A DNA stretch of 64,000 bases, from contig NC_087108.1 in the NCBI RefSeq assembly GCF_963855985.1, positions 12,666,001-12,730,000 of the forward strand, read 5' to 3'. Below the pieces are notes generated by a model that worked only from the letters and a program-made list of their open reading frames with translations, had not been told where the DNA came from and did not search any database. A program made the position numbers and the translations under genes. This document shows positions 2,436 to 55,452 of this stretch, piece after piece; positions within the stretch are counted from its first letter, which is position 1, and each line of letters begins with the position of its first letter. The stretch comes from Ostrinia nubilalis. Taxonomy: Eukaryota > Arthropoda > Insecta > Lepidoptera > Crambidae.

Positions 2436-3560
2436 GACAAATCTCTGGAATATAGCAACACTGTTCAAAACAAATTTCAATCAAATCAATCCACTCGCAA
2501 CTCCAAAATCCTAAACCTCAGAACTCAAACAAAAACTCATGAACTAATTAAACGAAACGCAAATTGGTTTAAATATCAAATGGGGCTGAAAATACCTATC
2601 ATATCAATTAGTAAGTTGGATCGCTCGATCGGGACGGGGTTCCTGCACAATGCCCGAACTTCGCACATTACACGAGAGCGATTAAAAGACAAGTTTTTCC
2701 AAAGGGTACTGATGGTGTGGGTATAGAGCTGAGGAGACCGTTTTCAGGAGCTTTGAAAGTTCTTAGTGCCTAAAGCGAAGGCTACGGTTTTGTTAATTAC
2801 GAAATTGGCATTCTCTTGACCTCATTTCGATGTATTAATTACTGCAGTACATCGGAAGAAGGTATGTATGTTTAATAGTCTAAAACTAAAGGGATTTTAA
2901 TCATCACCAGTTCGTCCAGTCTCTCATCATAACCCTCTTTTTTACCAAAGGCAATTGGATTTGGCGTTTTTAAATTAAAGAGGGAATTCAATCGTATTCA
3001 TTTTTATAGGAATCATTATTTTATCTTGAACTAGTCTATGGAAAATATTAGTTTTAGGTAGCATATAAAAAACCTTTGACTAGAAAAATTACAGATGTGT
3101 AAAATTTCAATTGACCTACCTTCTTTAAAATGTTATAATGTAAATTTCTCTGGCCATATATTGTAATCCAACTAACGTAAAAAAAATATAATTTTTGTTT
3201 TACTGTCCCCAACAATATAACATATTTTTTGATTTCCCCAAAATATTTAGGACCAAAATAACAACAATCCGACACTATTGTCCTGTTCTTTGTCACACTG
3301 AAATATTTTTCTGTCACACCTCCAACTCCTTCTGTGTATATCCTATTAGACAATCGGCGCATCGGTGGACCGTGAGCCATTAGGGTTTTAATTGAAAATA
3401 GCGCAAAGGCAGTAAATTGTAGAGTGCAGGGGCTGCAGCGATAGGAATGGATGTCGAAACTAGATTTAATTGCTCCTTTTTGGGCAAGTTTTAGAGGAAT
3501 TCAGACTGGAAAGCTGAATATGCATTTTACGGATTTTTTTATGGGAATAAGGATAGGACA
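2436..3560. other. Intron sequence, nothing recognised
   Basis: AT-rich sequence with short open frames that look like chance. An open stretch at 2418-2726 begins inside MITE B and has no recognisable protein signature. Confidence 0.5.
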
Positions 3561-3564
3561 TGTG

Positions 3565-3831
3565 TAACAGACCGCAGAATCGCAAAAATCAAGTGGCAGT
3601 GGGCGGGGCACATAGCTCGAAGAGCTGATGGCCGCTGGGGCAGGAAAGTTCTTGAGTGGCGACCACGAGCCGGAAGACGTAGCGTGGGCAGGCCTCCCAC
3701 TAGGTGGACCGACGATCTGGTGAGGGTCGCGGGAGGTGCCTGGATGCGAGCGGCGCAGGACCGGTCTTTGTGGAAATCCTTGGGGGAGGCCTTTGTCCAG
3801 CAGTGGACGTCATTTGGCTGAAACGAACGAA
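3565..3831 (+). mobile_element. RTE-type LINE 3' fragment
   Basis: It encodes a decayed C-terminal tail of an RTE-clade endonuclease/reverse transcriptase. Visible pieces include RIAKIKWQWAGHIARRADG, then RWTDDL, then the terminal block ending in VQQWTSFG. It finishes with a short CGAA-repeat tail (GAAACGAACGAA). Only the last ~90 codons are left, so this is a 5'-truncated dead copy. It is closely related to the copies at 13162-13475 and 23205-23452. Confidence 0.85.
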
Positions 3832-9287: not shown

Positions 9288-9827
9288 CATCATCATTTCA
9301 GCCACAGGACGTCCACTGCTGAACATAATCCAATGACTTCCACATCGCACGGTTGGTCCCGGCCTGCATCCAGTGCCTTCCTGCTACCTTTATCAGGTCG
9401 TCGGTCCACCTTATGGGTGGACGTCCCACGCTGCGTTTTCCGGTACGCGGCCTCCATTCCAGAACCTTGTTGCCTCATGCCGTCAGTTCTGCGTACTATG
9501 TGCCCTGCCCACTGCCACTTCAGCTTGCTAATCCGTCGGGCTATGTCAGCGACTTTAGTTCGTTTACGGATCTCCTTATTTCTGATTCGATCTCGTAAAG
9601 AAACACCGAGCATAGCCCTCTCCATAGTACGCTGTGCAACTTTGAGCTTCTGTATAGGGTCTATAGTGAGAGGCCACGTTTCCGAGTCATCACAGGATGA
9701 ACACGGACAAAACGAAGCTTATGTCGAACGTCCATGTTGCGCTCGATTCTTGAGATTGTTGACAAGTATGTCTACCTCGGACAAACGATTCAGCTAGGTA
9801 GGTCCAATTTCGAGAAGAAGGAGGTCA
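9288..9827 (-). mobile_element. RTE-type LINE insertion with 5' inversion
   Basis: On the minus strand 9288-9690 encodes decayed C-terminal RTE reverse-transcriptase sequence (visible: RAMLGVSLRDRIRNKEIRK, then ISKLKWQWAGHIVRRTDG). The 3' tail is an ATG repeat. From about 9693 to 9827 an upstream RT segment (KTKLMSNVHVA-like, then ILEIVDKYVYLGQTIQL) is in the opposite orientation. Near-identical 13-mers bound the whole insertion: ATTTCCCTTTCAT at 9275-9287 and ATTTCCTTTTCAT at 9828-9840. This fits a single twin-primed insertion. Confidence 0.85.
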
Positions 9828-13161: not shown

Positions 13162-13475
13162 CGTTCGTTTCAGCCGAATGACGTCCACTGCTGGACAAAG
13201 GCCTCCCCCAAGGATTTCCACAAAGAGCGGTCCTGCGCCGCTCGCATCCAGGCACTTCCCGCGACCTTCACCATATCGTCGGTCCACCTAGTGGGAGGCC
13301 TGCCCATGCTACGTCCTCCGGCTCGTGGTCGCCACTCAAGAACTTTCCTGCCCCAGCGGCCATCAGCTCTTCGAGCTATGTGCCCCACCCTCTGCCACTT
13401 GATTTTAGCGATTCTGCGGGTTATGTCAGCCACTCTGGTTTTCCTACGGATCTCCTCATTTCTGATTCGATCACG
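13162..13475 (-). mobile_element. 5'-truncated RTE insertion with exact TSD
   Basis: ATTCAAATTT occurs at 13152-13161 and 13476-13485, directly flanking the element. On the minus strand it encodes an open C-terminal RTE fragment running from RDRIRNEEIRRKTRVADITR through RWTDDMVKVAGSAWMRAA to a terminal VQQWTSFG. A CGAA-type 3' tail follows. It is the best-preserved copy in the window, and the fragment is still open in one frame, so it is fairly young. Confidence 0.9.
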
Positions 13476-13539
13476 ATTCAAATTTAATTTGACCCAAAAA
13501 CTGAACTATACTTAAACACAAGGGTCAACCAAGGAACTG

Positions 13540-23046: not shown

Positions 23047-23530
23047 GGCCCAGTTTTTTGATTCGTAGTTAAAATAACCAATAGTCAAATTTGACAGATG
23101 TCAAATGACGAGTGGTTAATTGATATCAGAAAAAAATAATTTTCGAACAATGGTGAGCTTGACTTTTAGTACATTTTTTTAACTATTCGTTTTTTCTTTT
23201 CGTTTCGTTTTTCAGCCGAAAGACGTCCACTGCTGGACAAAGGCCTCCCCCAAGGATTTCCACAAAGACCGGTCCTGCGCCGCTCGCATCCAGGCACCTC
23301 CCGCGACCTTCACCAGATCGTCAGTCCACCTAGTGGGAAGCCTGCCCACGCTACGTCTTCCGGCTCGTGGTCGCCACTCAAGAACTTTCCTGTCCCAGCG
23401 GCCATCAGTTCTTCGAGCTATGTGCCCCGCCCACTGCCACTTGATTTTAGCTTACATTTTGTTAATATTTAACCATTAGTAGCAAAACTTAACAATTAGT
23501 TATTTTAACTATGAATCAAAAAACTGGGCC
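23047..23530. mobile_element. MITE family E, split by an RTE insertion
   Basis: The ends GGCCCAGTTTTTTGATTCG and CGAATCAAAAAACTGGGCC (the right end differs by one base) form long inverted repeats that continue through TAGTTAAAATAAC. TTA flanks it at 23044-23046 and 23531-23533, suggesting a PIF/Harbinger-type MITE. Without the RTE insert the MITE is about 210-240 bp. Confidence 0.75.
23205..23452 (-). mobile_element. RTE 3' fragment nested in MITE E
   Basis: It is nearly identical in layout to 13162-13475, truncated at the GATTTTAG position. TACATTTT occurs near both sides (about 23170 and 23453) and may be the TSD. The left copy is separated from the element by a T/CGTTT-rich tail. Confidence 0.8.
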
Positions 23531-24225: not shown

Positions 24226-24701
24226 AGCTTAAGGCCTATTTCGATTCAATCGAAATGTATTCAATAAGTTTGCCGTTCAGTATTTACTACACCCATAGCA
24301 ATGCGTATTACCGAAATTGTACTTGTACAATGGCTGATATCTTTTTATGGTTTTTGTACTCTTAGCGTTATTGTTGTGAATGATAGATATTTGGGGTAAG
24401 TATTTTTTGTTTTATTAGGAAGGAGAATAAAAAAATGGGTTGTCTTCGTCTTGATCAGTATTACCAACAACACCAAACTTGAACTTAAAAGATAAGTATT
24501 AAGATAGCAAAATAAGCCTCATTTGTACACTGAGTAATTGGCTGCAATCACGACTAAAAAATAAAAAAAAGCCATAATGATGATTGACATAGGAAGTATT
24601 TTGGTCATCAAAGGGTTGAAGTCGAAAACTTTAAAGCTTCAACTACACCAACGCATGCAGATTGCTATCGCTGGCGCGATCAAAGGCCAATGACAGGTCG
24701 C

Positions 24702-24755
24702 GCGCGACCCGTGACAGTCCGCGCGACCCATGACAGTCCGCGCGAGGGTCCATAT
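24702..24755 (+). repeat. 19-bp minisatellite, left arm of fold-back element
   Basis: Two full units of GCGCGACCC(A/G)TGACAGTCC and a partial third, starting at 24702, 24721 and 24740. Confidence 0.85.
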
Positions 24756-25008
24756 TGGCTCACCTAAAGTTATTTACCCGAAATTGTTCTTCCTAACGAT
24801 TTTAAATCCGAATGATCACTCTTCCTAAAATTTTTCCTCCTAAAGTTTTCATTCATACTATTTGTAGTGGTACTGGCGATGTTCATAACTCTCATGTTTC
24901 CGAAAATTTAAATTAATAATATCATTAATGTGAATATATTTAAACTCCTACTGTTTTTTATCATAACACTTTTATCCCTAAACATAATTACCATAATATT
25001 TTCGCTTG

Positions 25009-25817
25009 CTCGGCTTGTGCGTTGTGGTCACAGCTCTAACCTAACCTAAACCAATTATTATGAATAGGACCGATTCGTTTCTGGAACTTGACTGAATGAC
25101 TGGGGCGGGACTCTGGCTTCGCTCGCTCGGCTCATGCGTTGTGGTCACAGTTCTAACCTAACCTAAACCAATAAATTATGAATAGGACCGATTCGTTTCT
25201 GGAACTTGACTGAATGACTGGGGCGGGACTCTGGCTTCGCTCGCTCGACTCGTGCGTTATGGTCACAGTTCTAACCTAACCTAAACCAATAATTATGAAT
25301 AGGACCGATTCGTTTCTGGAACTTGACTGAATGACCGGAGCGGGACTCTGGCTTCGCTCGCTCGGCTCGTGTGTTGTGGTCACAGCTCTAACCTAACCTA
25401 AACCAATAATTATGAAAAGGACCGATTCGTTTCTGGAACTTGACTGAATGACTGGAGCGGGACTCTGGCTTCGCTCGCTCGGCTAGTGCGTTGTGGTCAC
25501 AGTTCTAACCTAACCTAAACCAATAATTATGAATAGGACCGATTCGTTTCTGGAACTTGACAGAATGACTGGAGCGTCACTCTGGCTTCGCTTGCTCGGC
25601 TCGTGCGTTATGGTCACAGTTCTAACCTAACCTAAACCAATAATTATGAATAGGACCGATTCGTTTCTGGAACTTGACAGAATGACTGGAGCGTCACTCT
25701 GGCTTTGCTTGCTCGGCTCGTGCGTTATGGTCACAGTTCTAACCTAACCTAAACCAATAATTATGAATAGGACCGATTCGTTTCTGGAACTTGACTGAAT
25801 GACTGGAGCGGGACTCA
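25009..25817 (+). repeat. 117-bp satellite, about seven units
   Basis: The marker GGTCACAG starts at 25026, 25143, 25261, 25378, 25495, 25612 and 25729, giving a period of 117-118 bp. Each unit contains CTAACCTAACCTAAACC, two and a bit copies of the insect telomere-type CCTAA repeat, and GACCGATTCGTTTCTGGAAC. Units are highly alike, so the array expanded recently or is homogenised. Confidence 0.9.
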
Positions 25818-26126
25818 AGTATACGTGCTAATGCCAACAAACTTGAACTTTAATATATCGTCAAAGAAAGAAATCTAAACAAAAAAGATATGACTTTGAA
25901 TAATAGTGTAAAATATGGTTATGTTTAGAAAATCTAGGAGAACAAAAAAAAGTATAATAGATGTTTATTGCTAATGACATTATGATGTTGAATGATTCGG
26001 AATTATGAACATTAGAGACAGAGTAGTTAGGAATTGTGATTGATAGGATGAAAAACTTTAGGAAGAACATTTTCGGACTTCCAATTTTCGGAGTTGAAAA
26101 TTTAGGTGAACTTTGGCGCACCCTCC

Positions 26127-26250
26127 GCGCGACCCATGACAGTCCGCGCGACCCATGACAGTCCGCGCGACCCATGACAGTCCGCGCGACCCATGACAGT
26201 CCGCGCGACCCATGACAGTCCGCGCGACCCATGACAGTCCGCGCGACCTG
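26127..26250 (+). repeat. 19-bp minisatellite, right arm of fold-back element
   Basis: Six full units of GCGCGACCCATGACAGTCC start at 26127, 26146, 26165, 26184, 26203 and 26222, with a partial one at 26241. They run in the same direction as the left-arm array although the surrounding ends are inverted. The open minus-strand frame with GRADCHGSRGLSWVA repeats is only this array read out. Confidence 0.9.
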
Positions 26251-44111: not shown

Positions 44112-44930
44112 AATAAAAAATACTGTCTAAGGTCTGTAGCTAAAGGTCTAAGCTGTAAGATAGAAGAATCTTCTAGCCAAAAAGATGGCAGATGCAGCAG
44201 ATGTCAACGGATTTAAAACTGGAGTTCATGTGACTCCTTGTAGATTTGAGTGTCTAGAGCGTCCCTTCCTCCACCATGCGTAAGAATTTTCACAAAAATA
44301 CTGTCTAAGGTCTGTAGCTAAAGGTCTACGCTGCAAGATGGAAGAATCTTCTAACCAAAAAGATGGCAGATGCAGCAGATGTCAACGGATTTAAAACTGG
44401 AGTTGATGTGACTCCTTGTAGACTTGAGTGTCTAGAGCGTCCCTTCCTCCACCATGCGTAAGAATGTTTCAAAAATACTGTCTAAGGTCTGTAGCTAAAG
44501 GTCTAAGCTGCAAGATAGAAGAAGCTTCTAGCCAAAAAGATGGCAGATGCAGCAGATGTCAACGGATTTAAAACTGGAGTTCATGTGACTCCTTGTAGAT
44601 TTGAGTGTCTAGAGCGTCCCTTCCTCCACCATGCGTAAGAATTTTCACAAAAATACTGTCTAAGGTCTGTAGCTAAAGGTCTACGCTGCAAGATGGAAGA
44701 ATCTTCTAACCAAAAAGATGGCAGATGCAGCAGATGTCAACGGATTTAAAACTGGAGTTGATGTGACTCCTTGTAGACTTGAGTGTCTAGAGCGTCCCTT
44801 CCTCCACCATGCGTAAGAATGTTTCAAAAATACTGTCTAAGGTCTGTAGCTAAAGGTCTAAGCTGCAAGATAGAAGAAGCTTCTAGCCAAAAAGATGGCA
44901 GATGCAGCATATATCAACGGATTTAAGACT
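44112..44930 (+). repeat. 177/178-bp satellite with dimeric higher-order pattern
   Basis: TACTGTCTAAGGTCTGTAGC starts at 44121, 44299, 44476, 44654 and 44831. Units 1, 3 and 5 share one set of variants (CTAAGCTG, AGATAGAAGAA, and in 1 and 3 AGTTCATGTG and GTAGATTTGAG). Units 2 and 4 share another (CTACGCTGCAAGATGGAAG, TCTTCTAACC, AGTTGATGTG, GTAGACTTGAG). The array is thus A-B-A-B-A, expanded as a 355-bp dimer. The fifth unit is truncated. Confidence 0.95.
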
Positions 44931-47559
44931 GTCATCCTCTCATTGTTATCTGTAATGTAAATTATTTTTAAAATGTATTTAAAAAATAAAATGTTCGTTT
45001 TATTATTTCAAAAATCTGACCTCTCAACTCAACTACACTACACAAACACCTTTGTTCGCAACTGTACTGACGAAACCTCGATATTATACCGTTCATTTAA
45101 GATGGCAAGCCTTATGTATGAAACGGTCGCTTTTTTGTAACCTTTATAATTTGGTCGGCTTATAGAAGAATTCCTGATATTTTTTTGCAGTTCGATAACT
45201 TTCTTATAAGTCGTAATATAAAGCTGAAATTAACAGGATAGCTTATTCAAGGAACATTTTAATTTGTCCATTGTATGCCATGTTCCCTTGTTATAAGGGA
45301 ATCGCGTATTCGGCCACGAAAGTAAGACTGTTAAAATAAATTAGATTTCTTGAAATCTCTCTTTTGCGCAAAGCCACATCATTTATATTTACTGTGGCTA
45401 TAAAGGTGTACCAGGGGTACATGCTACACCTTTTTATTCGATTGTAAGAGTACTGGTTTACTCACAAATCCGTTTTATCTGATTTTCGAAATCTTTTAAT
45501 TACACTGGTGTTTATCATTCAAAGCAATGACTAATGTTTGAACTAATTTGGACATATCAAGGTCTGTCATTGGTATTTTTTTCAAACTTCTGCGTTGAGC
45601 CATTTACGAAATCTGGGACATCACAAAACATTACCCCAGCAAAATTCTAAATAACTTGAGAACCGGAACACGAACAAATTTTACTATTCGTGGACAAATT
45701 ACTACGCAACAAGAGTATAGATCCATGTATTTGGTTCCGGGATAGAACGACTTTCAAAAAAAAAATTTGCCAGGGTAATGTTTGAAACGTTACCCCAGCA
45801 AAATCTGTTTTTTCCTAATAACTTTAAAACTATAATTTGAACGAATTTTGCTATTAGTGGACAAATTTCTGCTCACGATGGACTAATTATCTGCTATACT
45901 CTCGACTCTCTAAAGCACAACATTTATAAAAATTTTGCAACATTTAAAAACCGTGTGTGATGCTCATTGCTCATAGTGATTTTCGATACAGAGCCCCGTA
46001 CATACGTTATACATAAATTATGGAAAGAAAACACCCAGACCAATACAAACAAATATGTATGCAATTTTAGTATGACATTTTTATTTATTAATAAACAAAA
46101 AGACTGAACAAAATTGATGCGTGTATCTACTGATTAATGTAATTAACCATCTCGCAAAGTTTCGTGAATTGCAACAACTATAATTTATTATCCAAGCTCT
46201 AAATAATCGCTACTACGAGTAACTGATCATCAAATGTTTTTCCAATCGCTCAAGCTCCCGAGGATCTACCGATAGGTCGGGTGACGTAATCTTGAAATTC
46301 TTTTAGCCGGCGCGGTACTTCCGGAAGGTCGGGTGACGCCACGCCTCTTTGAACCGTGTTTACTTTGGCAGTTATATTCTATATTTCTTCGATTCTAAAA
46401 TATATTCCCAAAATTTTTGAAAGTTGTTTTAATTTGTATCACTTGGATATGATTTGTATTAGAAAGTGCTGTGAGTGTGACGCTTGAACGGAAGGAAGTC
46501 AACCTAACCTAACCAACTGCGTATTTCTAAACTGCGTATTTCTATACTGTGTAGCCGCGAGAGCTCTTTGGCGCGCTGTCTTCGGCGAAGTATTGCGCGC
46601 GCAGATTTTGACAGCGCGAAATACCTACTTTAGCAGAAATACCAAGCCTTAAAATGTACACTAAACTTAGCTTCACGCCTCCATGTTAAATTAAGAATAT
46701 CAAATTATTTTACATCCATAATTCGAGTTGACAGTTTAAAGAAAAGCAATTATTTGCAGATCGTTCGTGTTCAAGGAATTGTTATCGTAGATAGAAATTA
46801 ACGAAATAATTCCATTGTAAACTAATCAGTGCTATCTCAATACCGCAGTGTATGATGGAAATATATTCAGTAAATACTTTTCTTGTTGCTATATTTATTA
46901 ATCGACTTGTATTTGCTTAAGCGTCAAAATTTTCAGACATTCTCGTGGCTAATTAACTTGATATATTCATAACTACTAGATAATACTAAATAATAGTTAT
47001 CTAGCTAACCTACAATCAAGTCTTGACTAAACTCAAACAATGATAAAAATGTCAGAGGTGGATTCAGTTGGACATATTTCCATGGTAAGGATCCAACCCA
47101 CAACTACACTCATTATTGGGTTTGAAAATGAGTCTTCTTCCTCTAATTTCAGTATGTCTATACACTGACGCATTTTATTATTAGTCGCCATTTTAAACAT
47201 AATTTATCCTTATGTTTATTGCATTAAAGTCGAAAATCTGGGAATTCTAGAGCTGATACCTACTTAAGTAAATCTTTTTAGCTTTTATAATTGGTTTTCC
47301 CATTATTATCAGAATTATAATTAGGGTGATTAGACATTTTAATTAACTTATAATCTGAGATTTCAGCGAACAAAAATTACGCTTAACTGTAAGGTAATTT
47401 GTTATTTCCGCGATATTTATTATTATTTCACACGGTATGATGTTTGCCGGTCACACGTGTGTCAAGATTTGCCAACATTTTTGTACAAATGTTTTTCGGA
47501 AAGTTTTAGTTTGCATTTTCAACTTCCCATAACGCATTCCGGAAATATTTTGGAAGAGC
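44931..47559. other. Intron sequence with minor repeats
   Basis: Apart from a repeat at 45620-45865, it contains only weak hairpins and a TAACCTAACCTAACC-like run near 46500. A 46480-46625 stretch is GC-richer (GCGCGCTGTCTTCGGCGAAG). No gene was found. Confidence 0.45.
45620..45865. repeat. Diverged duplication with ATTACCCCAGCAAAAT
   Basis: TTACCCCAGCAAAAT occurs at about 45631 and 45791. Each copy is followed by ACTT-A-AAC and by GAA(C/T)AAATTTT-like sequence and TGGACAAATT. GGGTAATGTTT at 45773 is an inverted form of the first ACATTACCC. It may be an old TIR element. Confidence 0.4.
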
Positions 47560-48479
47560 TTTTGCAAAGACAAAACACGTGACAGAACTGAACGATTCAA
47601 CAGATTCTCACTTAGTTACACAAAAGCTTTTGTGCATCTTCGCAAACAGAATAATACAGGTCCAGCATAAAACTAAAAATCCAATAAAGCTCCTCGCTCT
47701 ACCACATAAGATTCTGCAGATAGAAGCGGTAGTTGAAGACAAAACAAAATCGCAAATTGCACTGATCGCGCAGATAAATTGAAGACAAAACACAATCGTA
47801 AAACGTGACGAATAACTTGTGCCTTCTGCATAGAGTAATAGAACGCCACGTTCTCCAAATAAACAACTTGCGCCCTTCTGTCAAATATAACAAAGCTTCT
47901 TTTCGGCCACAGATCGGACAGCTAGTAGAAGACAAAACACAATCGCAAAAGTTACGAATAACTTGTACCTTTCTGCTTGAAAAGAAACCCTCGATCTCCA
48001 GATAAACAACTTGCGCCCTTCTGTCAAATAAAACAAAGCTCCTTTTCGCCCACAGATCGGACAGCTAGTAGAAGACAAAACACAATCTTAAAACGTGACG
48101 AATAACTTGTGCCTTTCTGATTGAAAAGAAACCCTCGATCTCCAGATAAACAACTTGCGCCCTTCTGCCAAAGCCAATAACCCTCATTTTCGCCCACAGA
48201 TCTCGCACCTAGTAAAAGACAAAACACAATCGCAAAACGTTACGAATAACTTGTGCCTTTCTGCTTGAAAAGAAACCCTCGATCTCCAGATAAACAACTT
48301 GCGCCCTTCTGCCAAAGCCAATAACCCTCATTTTCGCCCACAGATCTCGCACCTAGTAAAAGACAAAACACAATCTTAAAACGCCACGAATAACTTGTGC
48401 CTTTCGGCTTGAAAAGAATCTCCAGATAAACAATTTGCGCCCTTCTGCCAGAGACAATAACGCTCAATTTCGTCCACAG
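47560..48479 (+). repeat. Tandem array of duplicated cut exon acceptors
   Basis: Units of about 144 bp each carry a pyrimidine-containing acceptor-like CCACAG (or GCAG), then a near-copy of the first 21 bases of the real exon, then a shared tail GACAAAACACAATCG. Exon-like starts fall at 47720, 47764, 47913, 48056, 48200 and 48344, and the true exon starts at 48480. Spacings in the regular part are 149, 143, 144, 144 and 136. Units at 47913 and 48056 would encode I-G-Q-L-V-E-D against I-A-Q-L-V-E-D in the real exon. Those at 48200 and 48344 would give I-S-H-L-V-K-D. Confidence 0.9.
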
Positions 48480-48661
48480 ATCGCGCAGTTAGTGGAAGAC
48501 GTGCGCCGCCTGCAAGCGTCGCTGGCGGCGCTTCAGGACGCGCACGCGCAGCAGCTGGCGCGGCTGGAGGAGCGGTTGGACGAGAAGAAACAGCACATCG
48601 CGCGGCTGGAAGCGCGCATCGACGCGCAGCGCGACTACGACGACATCAAGCGAGAGATCAG
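48480..48661 (+). CDS. ct: Coiled-coil exon of a cut/CUX homeobox protein (internal exon)
   Basis: This exon supplies part of the N-terminal coiled coil of a CUX/CASP-type protein. In the family this region precedes the DNA-binding cut repeats and homeodomain, or in the CASP splice form a Golgi membrane anchor. The exon opens after CGTCCACAG and closes at CAG|GTGAGT. Its 182 bases give 60 codons plus two bases. The peptide is rich in heptads of L, A, E, R and Q (LVEDVRRLQASLAALQ, then RLEERLDEKKQHIARLEARI) and ends in DYDDIKREI. That ending followed by the next exon's SMLRALDL resembles the conserved DYEEIK-type end of the CUX coiled coil. The exon is far more GC-rich than its surroundings. 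Other long coiled-coil proteins are the main alternative. Cut repeats and homeodomain are outside the window. Confidence 0.8.
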
Positions 48662-48705
48662 GTGAGTATTGGACTGGCTGATCTATTTGCACTGCACCAT
48701 CTATA

Positions 48706-48960
48706 ACCATCACTGTTGGACAAAGGATTTTCACAATGACTGGGCCTGGACTGACCGAATTTAGGCTGTTCCAGCAGCCTTTATTAGGTCGTCGATCCCC
48801 TGAGTGGCAGGGAGGCCTGGATAAAGGCCTTTCCCAAGGATTTCTGTAACGACTGGCGCTTTCCAACCTCCACCTTCAACGTCTTAGTTCATCAAGCGGT
48901 TCAGCGCATCTTCGTTGCGTGGTCGCCTCTCGAGCTCTGTCCCAACATCCATCTATTCTT
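48706..48960 (-). mobile_element. Old RTE 3' fragments just after the exon
   Basis: Decayed pieces CTGTTGGACAAAGG, TTATTAGGTCGTCGATCC, GGCCTTTCCCAAGGATTTC and GTGGTCGCCTCTCGAG are recognisable. The order suggests two overlapping degraded copies beginning about 45 bases after the splice donor. Confidence 0.6.
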
Positions 48961-53232: not shown

Positions 53233-53777
53233 AGGTATTAGTCACTGATTGAGTTAAGCACTACACTTATAAATTAGTAACTATAGCGAATTGTAATAGA
53301 AAGACAATCTACTTACCAGTACTAACTGAACTAGTCTTGTCTATGCTCGGTAAATAACCGACAGATGAAGGTGACCGTTAATATTGTCGTTGAATTGAGT
53401 TTATGGCAAAAGCTCAGAATTAGGGATTGCAATTGCTGGATCCAGCATACAGCAATCCAGCTGGATCCAGCGCCTTTTTAAACATGCTGGATCCAGCATA
53501 CATTGCTGGATCCAGCGATGCGGATCCGCAAACGTATAATTTTCTATTGCTTAGTTTCGAATTACCGCCATTTTCAAAACGGCGCGGTGACGTTGCCGTT
53601 CTGTTGTTTTGTGCGTTGAACGGCGCCTCTCCGAAGTTACTGGTTACGTTAGTGTGATTGAAAAATCCAAAAAAGTATGAAGAAGCCGTAAAAAAAACTG
53701 TCTATTTTCCTTTGCCAAAAAAAATGCGATGCGACAGGAGATGAAAACTTTGTATAAATTAAAATATTGTAGAGCCG

Positions 53778-54116
53778 GTGCAAGAAGATAAAGATATCAT
53801 GGAGTTAGAAGAGAATGGTCTAAACGATGACGCAGAACTCGTGAAAATTACTTTAGAGCAAGAGCTTGAGATGGAACTTAAAAGAGAGAAGGAGAACTTT
53901 AACAAACAAAAGCCAAAGACAAGTGGTCAATTAGATTACGAAAAGGTACTGAAAAAAGAAATGAGCGTATATGAGGCAGAATGAGTGCGAGTGAACATTT
54001 ATCTATGGTGTACCTATGACTATTTAATAATCCTAAAACCGACCAGTGTGGAGGCCGAAAGGGCATTCTCAGTTCATATGCTGTTCTGTGAGGTTGTCAG
54101 TGCAGAATATAGATAA
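53778..54116 (+). pseudogene. Degenerate hAT transposase remnant
   Basis: An open frame at 53778-53984 encodes a lysine/glutamate-rich peptide (for example VLKKEMSVYEAE). After a stop, 54021-54113 encodes YLIILKPTSVEAERAFSVHM and a short tail to a stop at 54114. The P-T-S-V-E-A-E-R-A-F-S core matches the C-terminal dimerisation signature of hAT transposases (PxSS/TxxxERxFS). The RNase-H-like catalytic domain and BED finger are absent, so the enzyme is dead. Confidence 0.75.
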
Positions 54117-54827: not shown

Positions 54828-55215
54828 GTATTCGTAACTTTGTTATTTCATTGCTGTTATAAAAGTATCAATCGCGAAACAAAAAGTATCACATAAACGA
54901 CTTACTCATATCGTTTTTGTATCACTGTCATTACAACATTCGAAGAATTAATCCGACATCAAAACTAGCAATTTCCTCGAAATCCTTCGACAATGAGTCA
55001 GATCGCCCCAATCCTGTCGTTGAGGTAACAACTAACAACCGACGAAATATTATCGGCCCACACGGCAGCCTGATAGAAAACAAGCGAACACAGTGGGGGT
55101 GAGGGTAGTAACACCTCGAGTCGGACGGGATAAGGCCAAGCAGAAGAAAAAGAAGAATATTAGCATCTTTTACTAGTTTAGCACATTTCTCTCTGCTATC
55201 TTTCTTCAGTTTCTG
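54828..55215. other. Intron sequence, nothing recognised
   Basis: No supportable feature. Confidence 0.5.
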
Positions 55216-55217
55216 CT

Positions 55218-55452
55218 ACAGGCTAAAAAAATATAGCCATAGGCAAAGAAAACATAGCCACAGACTAAGAAAACATGGCCACAGATTAAGAAAACATAGC
55301 CACAGATTAAGAAAACATAGCCACAGGCTAAGAAAACATAGCCGCAGACTAAGTTAACATAGCCACAGACTAAGAAAACATAGCCACATACTAAAAAAAC
55401 ATAGCCACAGACTAAAAAAACAGTCACAGACTAAGAAAGCATAGCCTCTGTG
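55218..55452 (-). repeat. 21-bp minisatellite, about ten units
   Basis: The unit is close to ACATAGCCACAGACTAAGAAA, with point variants. As 21 is a multiple of 3, the minus strand stays open as a VFLVCGY heptapeptide repeat. This is an effect of the period, not evidence of a gene. Confidence 0.92.

What the first reader, a model, noticed from the sequence alone, without database searches (positions are those of the whole stretch)
47560..48490. Array of duplicated splice acceptors plus exon starts directly upstream of a cut exon
Six copies of 'acceptor-like AG plus about 21 bases of exon start' precede the real exon at roughly 144-bp steps. In the two copies at 47913 and 48056, three of four differences from the true exon start change the encoded heptapeptide little (I-G-Q-L-V-E-D against I-A-Q-L-V-E-D). 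Each copy offers a decoy 3' splice site. Use of one would append a short frame that soon hits a stop, so the array could act as a splicing brake or a source of alternative isoforms of a developmental regulator. I know of no description of such an array.
Basis: partly seen in the sequence, partly recalled or inferred. Interest (0 to 1): 0.75.

Follow-up and report, generated by a model that had tools for sequence, protein, structure and literature searches.

The report
Minisatellite of duplicated exon starts
In what looks like a moth or butterfly genome, the last stretch of an intron plus the first 21 bases of an exon of the gene cut were copied several times in a row, making spare-looking splice sites; arrays of this kind have been described in lancelet genes, where splicing was reported to run normally, so this is most likely a harmless repeat rather than a switch.

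Summary
The array is real: Tandem Repeats Finder gives 47760-48500, period 144, 5.2 copies, 88% matches, score 982, against at most 54 in 200 shuffles. Each unit carries the end of the intron plus the first 21 bases of the exon. The exon (48480-48661) is a cut/CUX1 coiled-coil exon. A decoy read in the exon's frame would stop after 33-90 nt. Nothing seen shows that decoys are used: no good donor lies in the units, and the acceptor zone is not better conserved among units than the rest. By a rough matrix, though, the decoys are no weaker than the true acceptor. The kind is described: amphioxus 'mirages', tandem duplications of intron end plus exon start (BflGb6: 150-160 bp units, 81-100% identical), which RT-PCR suggests do not disturb splicing. 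Best reading: a mirage-type minisatellite in an apparently lepidopteran gene, spliced out with the intron, probably functionless. No RNA data, relatives' DNA or genome-wide search could be consulted.

The parts
47787..48500 (+). tandem array of five regular units, U2-U6 (147, 143, 144, 144, 136 bp as cut; U2 was cut at 47789, 145 bp), each = 3' end of the intron + 21-base copy of the exon start; the last unit runs into the true exon
   Evidence: TRF 47760-48500, period 144, 5.2 copies, 88%; unit alignments
47913..47933 (+). exon-start copy 1 (IGQLVED), preceded by CAG; frame stops after 90 nt
48056..48076 (+). exon-start copy 2 (IGQLVED), preceded by CAG; stop after 33 nt
48200..48220 (+). exon-start copy 3 (ISHLVKD), preceded by CAG; stop after 66 nt
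48344..48364 (+). exon-start copy 4 (ISHLVKD), preceded by CAG; stop after 33 nt
47765..47786 (+). decayed unit end (ATCGCGCAG...GAAGAC); no AG in register
   Evidence: 47741-47788 against the unit consensus: 0 of 300 shuffles reach its score
47717..47756 (+). probable oldest, degenerate copy (CAG + ATAGAAGCGGTAGTTGAAGAC)
   Evidence: 82.5% over 40 bases to 47910-47949, E 1e-5 inside the window; against: 22 of 300 shuffles of 47700-47740 do as well against the consensus
47567..47578 (+). possible left edge: AAGACAAAACAC, identical to the unit-to-unit junction; the true exon also has AAGAC at 48496-48500
   Evidence: 12 identical bases; 5 of 300 shuffles of 47564-47740, and 8 of 300 of 47564-47700, score at least as well, so only suggestive
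48480..48661 (+). true cut/CUX1 coiled-coil exon (182 nt), acceptor CCACAG, donor CAG|GTGAGT

Best explanation
It is a 'mirage'-type minisatellite. A segment from inside the intron to base 21 of the downstream exon was duplicated in tandem and then expanded and reshuffled by unequal exchange or gene conversion. Only the last unit is joined to the rest of the exon, so the gene stayed intact: its acceptor pairs with a strong donor (CAG|GTGAGT) across a G+C-rich exon, and the upstream copies are removed with the intron. The copies drift without selection for use as splice sites. Shown: the array, its reach into the exon, the intact true exon, the mosaic pattern of the units. Inferred: mode of origin, normal splicing, lack of function.
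For: Array and unit borders. Intact, conserved exon: 7 proteins with E <= 0.01 among 642 candidates, 86-92% identical, one named 'Homeobox protein cut-like 1, partial [Papilio xuthus]', one from Spodoptera frugiperda, five without organism name. Mosaic units: 39 of 120 testable pairs of informative columns fail the four-gamete test (repeated mutation could account for some); U4 and U5 are 97% identical while U2, at the left edge, is 80-87% identical to the others. Acceptor zone plus exon-like part: 18 of 51 ungapped columns vary against 16 of 84 in the rest (five units, Fisher p = 0.04); for the four decoy units 14 of 51 against 17 of 92 (p = 0.29), so no sign of preferential conservation. In the four regular copies the differences confined to one pair change amino acids (A>G; A>S, Q>H, E>K), whereas the two that separate all four from the exon are synonymous, as expected if the exon alone is under coding constraint. 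Best donor-like site in 47561-48480 scores 4.2, and 2.8 inside the regular units, against 13.1 for the true donor, rough matrix. GC is 0.665 in the exon and 0.40-0.42 after the decoys. Other tandem arrays in the window (117 x 7.0, 178 x 4.6, 21 x 11.0, 19 x 6.6) suggest that tandem expansion is common here. Amphioxus parallels with RT-PCR.
Against: The regular decoy acceptors are not visibly weaker than the true one: in one rough matrix all four score above it, in the other three of four, so decoys would have to be excluded by exon definition, which was not tested. All four kept CAG and a pyrimidine-rich tract. Human arrays at exon-intron boundaries can alter splicing. The degenerate copy at 47720, left out of the codon argument, has 7 differences in 5 codons, two of them synonymous. 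No RNA data.
Confidence: 0.82

Rival explanations
1. Functional decoy array: the copies compete for the upstream donor; transcripts joined to a decoy meet a stop within 33-90 nt and are degraded or truncated, so the array lowers or tunes Cut output, possibly by copy number.
For: The four regular decoys keep CAG and pyrimidine tracts; 4 of 4 or 3 of 4 score above the real site, by matrix; all four lead to early stops in the exon's frame. In print, the ABCA7 VNTR correlates with exon 19 skipping and one unit can be retained, and human repeats at exon-intron boundaries can give alternative splicing.
Against: AG sites scoring at least as well as the true one are common: 100 or 54 of 3263 AGs on the + strand of the window, true site and decoys included, i.e. 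one in 640 or 1185 bases. No preferential conservation of the acceptor zone among units. Lancelet mirages are reported not to disturb splicing.
Confidence: 0.09
2. Assembly artefact: false expansion of a locus that has one or two units.
For: Misassembly of such an array is on record: the amphioxus BflGb6 structure appeared aberrantly assembled in the genome draft. U4 and U5 are 97% identical. The read data of this assembly could not be seen.
Against: 9 of the 10 pairs of regular units differ by 10-20%, which false duplication of one sequence would not make; the copy number may still be off by a unit.
Confidence: 0.05
3. The units belong to a dispersed satellite or transposon that happened to land next to the exon.
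For: Lepidopteran genomes are rich in dispersed repeats (recalled); the genome-wide check could not be run.
Against: No further unit elsewhere in the 64-kb window (best outside hit 17 bases, E 0.08), no exact match of a 40-base unit pattern in viral contigs, and each unit contains the host exon's own start, which a foreign repeat would not.
Confidence: 0.03

Closest known systems
Amphioxus 'mirages' (globin BflGb6/BflGb9; Adh3 as cited there), PMC3087553
   Same: Minisatellite-like tandem duplications; in BflGb6 of the 3' end of an intron plus the 5' part of the next exon, beside the authentic exon; units 150-160 bp (here 136-147), 6 or 3 units by haplotype, 81-100% identity (here 80-97% among the five regular units), concerted evolution inside the cluster with its boundary left out; many, not all, copies keep splice signals (passages)
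   Different: Other phylum and gene; length differences between haplotypes and RT-PCR results are reported there, neither of which could be examined here
Lancelet PGBD5 tandem repeats over splice sites, PMC3902484
   Different: The 108-bp repeat is a triplication; other gene
Potato RdRp tandem duplication across an intron-exon boundary, PMC4974935
   Same: Duplicated segment = 3' side of the intron + 5' side of the exon; branch site, pyrimidine tract and AG inherited (abstract and Results and Discussion)
   Different: Single duplication, which gave a new intron with a donor from the exon; here no comparable donor was found in the copies
ABCA7 intron 18 VNTR, PMC5954066
   Same: Tandem array whose unit includes a splice site; retention of one unit occurs (passages)
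   Different: 25-bp unit at the donor side, human; exon 19 skipping rises with VNTR length, so that array does affect splicing
Human internal tandem repeats at exon-intron boundaries in segmental duplications, PMC2812944
   Same: Minisatellite expansion at exon-intron boundaries (passages)
   Different: Units of about 30 bp on average, found by comparing recent paralogs; some give novel introns and alternative splicing

Membership tests
mirage (tandem duplication of an intron-exon boundary) | minisatellite-like tandem units that span an intron-exon boundary | tested here: met
   Units contain the intron end and 21 bases of the exon
mirage (tandem duplication of an intron-exon boundary) | authentic exon intact next to the array | tested here: met
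   Open exon, 86-92% identical to 7 relatives, good donor
mirage (tandem duplication of an intron-exon boundary) | concerted evolution of inner units, divergent edge units | tested here: met
   U4/U5 97%, U2 80-87%, decayed copies further left; 39 of 120 testable informative column pairs incompatible; only five regular units, so modest evidence
mirage (tandem duplication of an intron-exon boundary) | length instability between haplotypes or somatically | not testable with these tools
   One assembly only; the genome search did not complete
mirage (tandem duplication of an intron-exon boundary) | regular splicing despite duplicated splice signals | not testable with these tools
   No RNA data
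intron gain by tandem duplication | a usable donor in or just after a copy, so that copies become exon and new intron | tested here: not met
   Best donor-like site in 47561-48480 scores 4.2 (in the degenerate copy at 47720) and 2.8 in the regular units against 13.1 for the true donor, rough matrix
regulated poison exon / decoy acceptor | preferential conservation of the decoy splice signals among units | tested here: not met
   18 of 51 columns vary in the acceptor zone + exon-like part against 16 of 84 elsewhere, five units; 14 of 51 against 17 of 92 for the four decoy units
regulated poison exon / decoy acceptor | conservation of the decoys between species, and junction reads into them | not testable with these tools
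   No relatives' DNA found, no RNA data

The most novel reading that the evidence does not exclude
A copy-number-variable array of decoy acceptors tunes the amount of full-length Cut by sending a share of transcripts into early stops, which would make a minisatellite a dial on a developmental regulator.
Probability: 0.07. Interest if true: 0.65.

Novelty: new member of a known kind. Interest (0 to 1): 0.27.

Why it matters
The two papers on mirages that the searches brought up describe them in lancelets; this would be a case in an insect, in a homeobox gene. It suggests that such arrays arise where tandem duplication is frequent and the splicing machinery tolerates repeated acceptors. It is also a natural test of how the true 3' splice site is chosen among near-identical ones, since acceptor sequence alone does not seem to mark it here. 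If the decoys are used, copy number would matter for the dose of a developmental regulator; nothing seen here shows that.

Tried and rejected
Chance repeats: rejected by shuffles. Coding repeat (array exonised in frame): rejected, a stop comes before the true exon in all three frames from each of the five CAG-preceded copies tested (47720, 47913, 48056, 48200, 48344). Mini-exons inside units: rejected for lack of donors. Pfam and PDB searches with the exon gave weak matches, coiled-coil families among them, none at a Pfam cut-off, and in the PDB none below E 0.49; identity as cut rests. Relatives' DNA: the scans of viral contigs and genome contigs found no stretch that encodes a relative of the exon, so presence or absence of the array in other Lepidoptera could not be tested. 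Four homologues (P0002, P0003, P0004, P0006) seem to run open into the upstream intron, but show only 22-35 codons of it, less than one unit, and so are uninformative. A search for literature on cut in Lepidoptera gave nothing useful in its listing. The splice-site matrices are approximations from general knowledge, used only for rough ranking.

Left border: the idea that AAGAC at 47567 and 48496 was the microhomology of the first duplication is attractive, but 5 of 300 (or 8 of 300, shorter stretch) shuffles match as well; kept as a suggestion only.

Full report
Observation. Tandem Repeats Finder reports an array at 47760-48500 with period 144, 5.2 copies and 88% matches, score 982; the repeat finder gives copies at spacings 143, 144, 144 and 136 (family D2). 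In 200 dinucleotide shuffles of 47300-48900 the same program found 4 rows in all, with a best score of 54 and a longest period of 21. I cut the region at the end of the exon-like part (GAAGAC) and obtained five regular units, U2 to U6: 47787-47933 (cut two bases later, at 47789), 47934-48076, 48077-48220, 48221-48364 and 48365-48500. U6 runs into the true exon. Each unit ends with CAG followed by 21 bases of exon start, at 47913, 48056, 48200, 48344 and, for the true exon, 48480. Pairwise identities among the five run from 80 to 97%.

To the left are traces of older units. 47765-47786 contains ATCGCGCAG...GAAGAC; 47741-47788 fits the unit better than all 300 shuffles, but TG stands before it, so it is no acceptor in register. 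The copy at 47720 is weaker: 22 of 300 shuffles of 47700-47740 do as well, while BLASTN in the window pairs 47717-47756 with 47910-47949 at 82.5%, E = 1e-5. The sequence AAGACAAAACAC at 47567-47578 equals the unit junction and could be the left border, but 5 of 300 shuffles (8 of 300 with the shorter stretch 47564-47700) do as well.

What the exon is. 48480-48661 is 182 nt long, ends in CAG|GTGAGT and reads IAQLVEDVRRLQ...DDIKREIR. Pfam and PDB searches gave only weak matches, coiled-coil families among them. Four of them (P0002, P0003, P0004, P0006) have unlike sequences followed by Q and IAQLVEDV, as if read from intron into exon, which agrees with the exon start at 48480 (the reading is mine). 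So this is a cut/CUX1 coiled-coil exon of what is most likely a lepidopteran.

What the copies can do. Read in the exon's frame, the decoys stop after 90, 33, 66 and 33 nt (47913, 48056, 48200, 48344), and in each of the three frames a stop comes before the true exon. With two rough acceptor matrices from general knowledge the true site scores 7.2 or 8.1; the four decoys score 7.5, 8.4, 9.3, 9.3 or 7.8, 9.8, 11.4, 11.4; the degenerate copy at 47720 scores 4.7 in both. Of 3263 AGs on the + strand of the window, 100 or 54 score at least as well as the true site (itself and decoys included), one in 640 or 1185 bases. So the acceptor sequence alone does not mark the true site, and strong-looking false sites are common anyway. 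What differs is the exon side: G+C of 0.665 against 0.40-0.42 after the decoys, and a donor scoring 13.1 against 4.2 for the best GT in 47561-48480. Exon definition is therefore the likely discriminator; that is inference.

Is there selection on the decoys? In the alignment of U2 to U6 the last 30 intron bases plus the exon-like 21 vary in 18 of 51 ungapped columns, the rest in 16 of 84 (Fisher p = 0.04); with the four decoy units alone it is 14 of 51 against 17 of 92 (p = 0.29). Kept decoys would show the opposite. This is what constraint on the exon alone would give. The numbers are small, and the degenerate copy at 47720 (7 differences in 5 codons, two of them synonymous) was left out of this argument.

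How it arose. The columns show mosaics: U3 resembles U5 (98%) in the first third of the unit but U2 (94%) in the last part, and 39 of 120 testable informative column pairs fail the four-gamete test. This points to unequal exchange or conversion among units, though repeated mutation could account for some. A duplication that starts in the intron and ends in the exon leaves the last copy joined to the full exon, so it does no harm as long as that acceptor is used. The window holds other tandem arrays of 117 x 7.0, 178 x 4.6, 21 x 11.0 and 19 x 6.6, so local tandem expansion is common here.

Comparison with what is known. [quoted passage not shown] PMC3902484 (one passage) names further lancelet genes (Adh, troponin C) with duplicated splice sites and no aberrant mRNA, and argues the same for PGBD5. 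PMC4974935 (abstract and Results and Discussion) reports a single duplication of the same geometry in a potato gene that created an intron. Against a purely passive reading, PMC5954066 (passages) reports exon skipping that rises with the length of a donor-containing VNTR, and PMC2812944 (passages) reports that human repeats at exon-intron boundaries can give novel introns and alternative splicing. Nine answered paper searches listed no paper that I recognised as an insect case from its title or the start of its abstract; the library holds only openly licensed papers, and all but these five papers were seen as listings only.

Limits. Whether the array is unique in the genome, variable or conserved is open, and so is its splicing. 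Verdict: a real and tidy example of a described kind, in a new place; the brake hypothesis is possible but unsupported.

Noticed in passing
window 25001-25816: 117-bp tandem array, 7.0 copies, 95% matches.
   Followed up: no
window 44116-44931: 178-bp array (4.6 copies, 94%) that scores better as a 355-bp dimer (2.3 copies, 98%), i.e. perhaps a higher-order repeat, about 3 kb upstream of the cut array.
   Followed up: no
window 26124-26248 and 24690-24745: 19-bp unit (TCCGCGCGACCCATGACAG) in 6.6 identical copies, and a smaller array (2.8 copies, 89%) whose consensus is the same unit rotated, about 1.4 kb away; the 117-bp array lies between them.
   Followed up: no
window 55218-55446: 21-bp array, 11 copies, 85% matches; 21 is a multiple of 3 and a minus-strand frame (55206-55430) reads as an open run of VFLVCGY-like repeats.
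   Followed up: no
window 48002, 48146, 48290, 48426: Four of the five regular units carry a second CAG|ATAAAC 54 bases before the exon-like part; it scores well below the true acceptor in both rough matrices.
   Followed up: partly
window 48450-48451: Only the last unit has CCAGAG where the others have CCAAAG or TCAAAT, which makes an AG 28 bases before the true exon start with a rough score above the true one (8.3 against 7.2, or 8.5 against 8.1).
   Followed up: partly
window 3495-3821 (+), 9293-9718 (-), 13170-13505 (-), 23212-23451 (-): Similar frames (such as AKIKWQWAGHIARR...) that look like tails of retrotransposon reverse transcriptases (label from recall); no Pfam match at E <= 1 for the first two, the other two were not scanned.
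   Followed up: partly
window 53763-53984 (+): Acidic 73-codon open frame (ELEENGLNDDAELVKITLEQELEMELKREKENFNKQ...), perhaps an exon of another gene; no Pfam match at E <= 1.
   Followed up: partly
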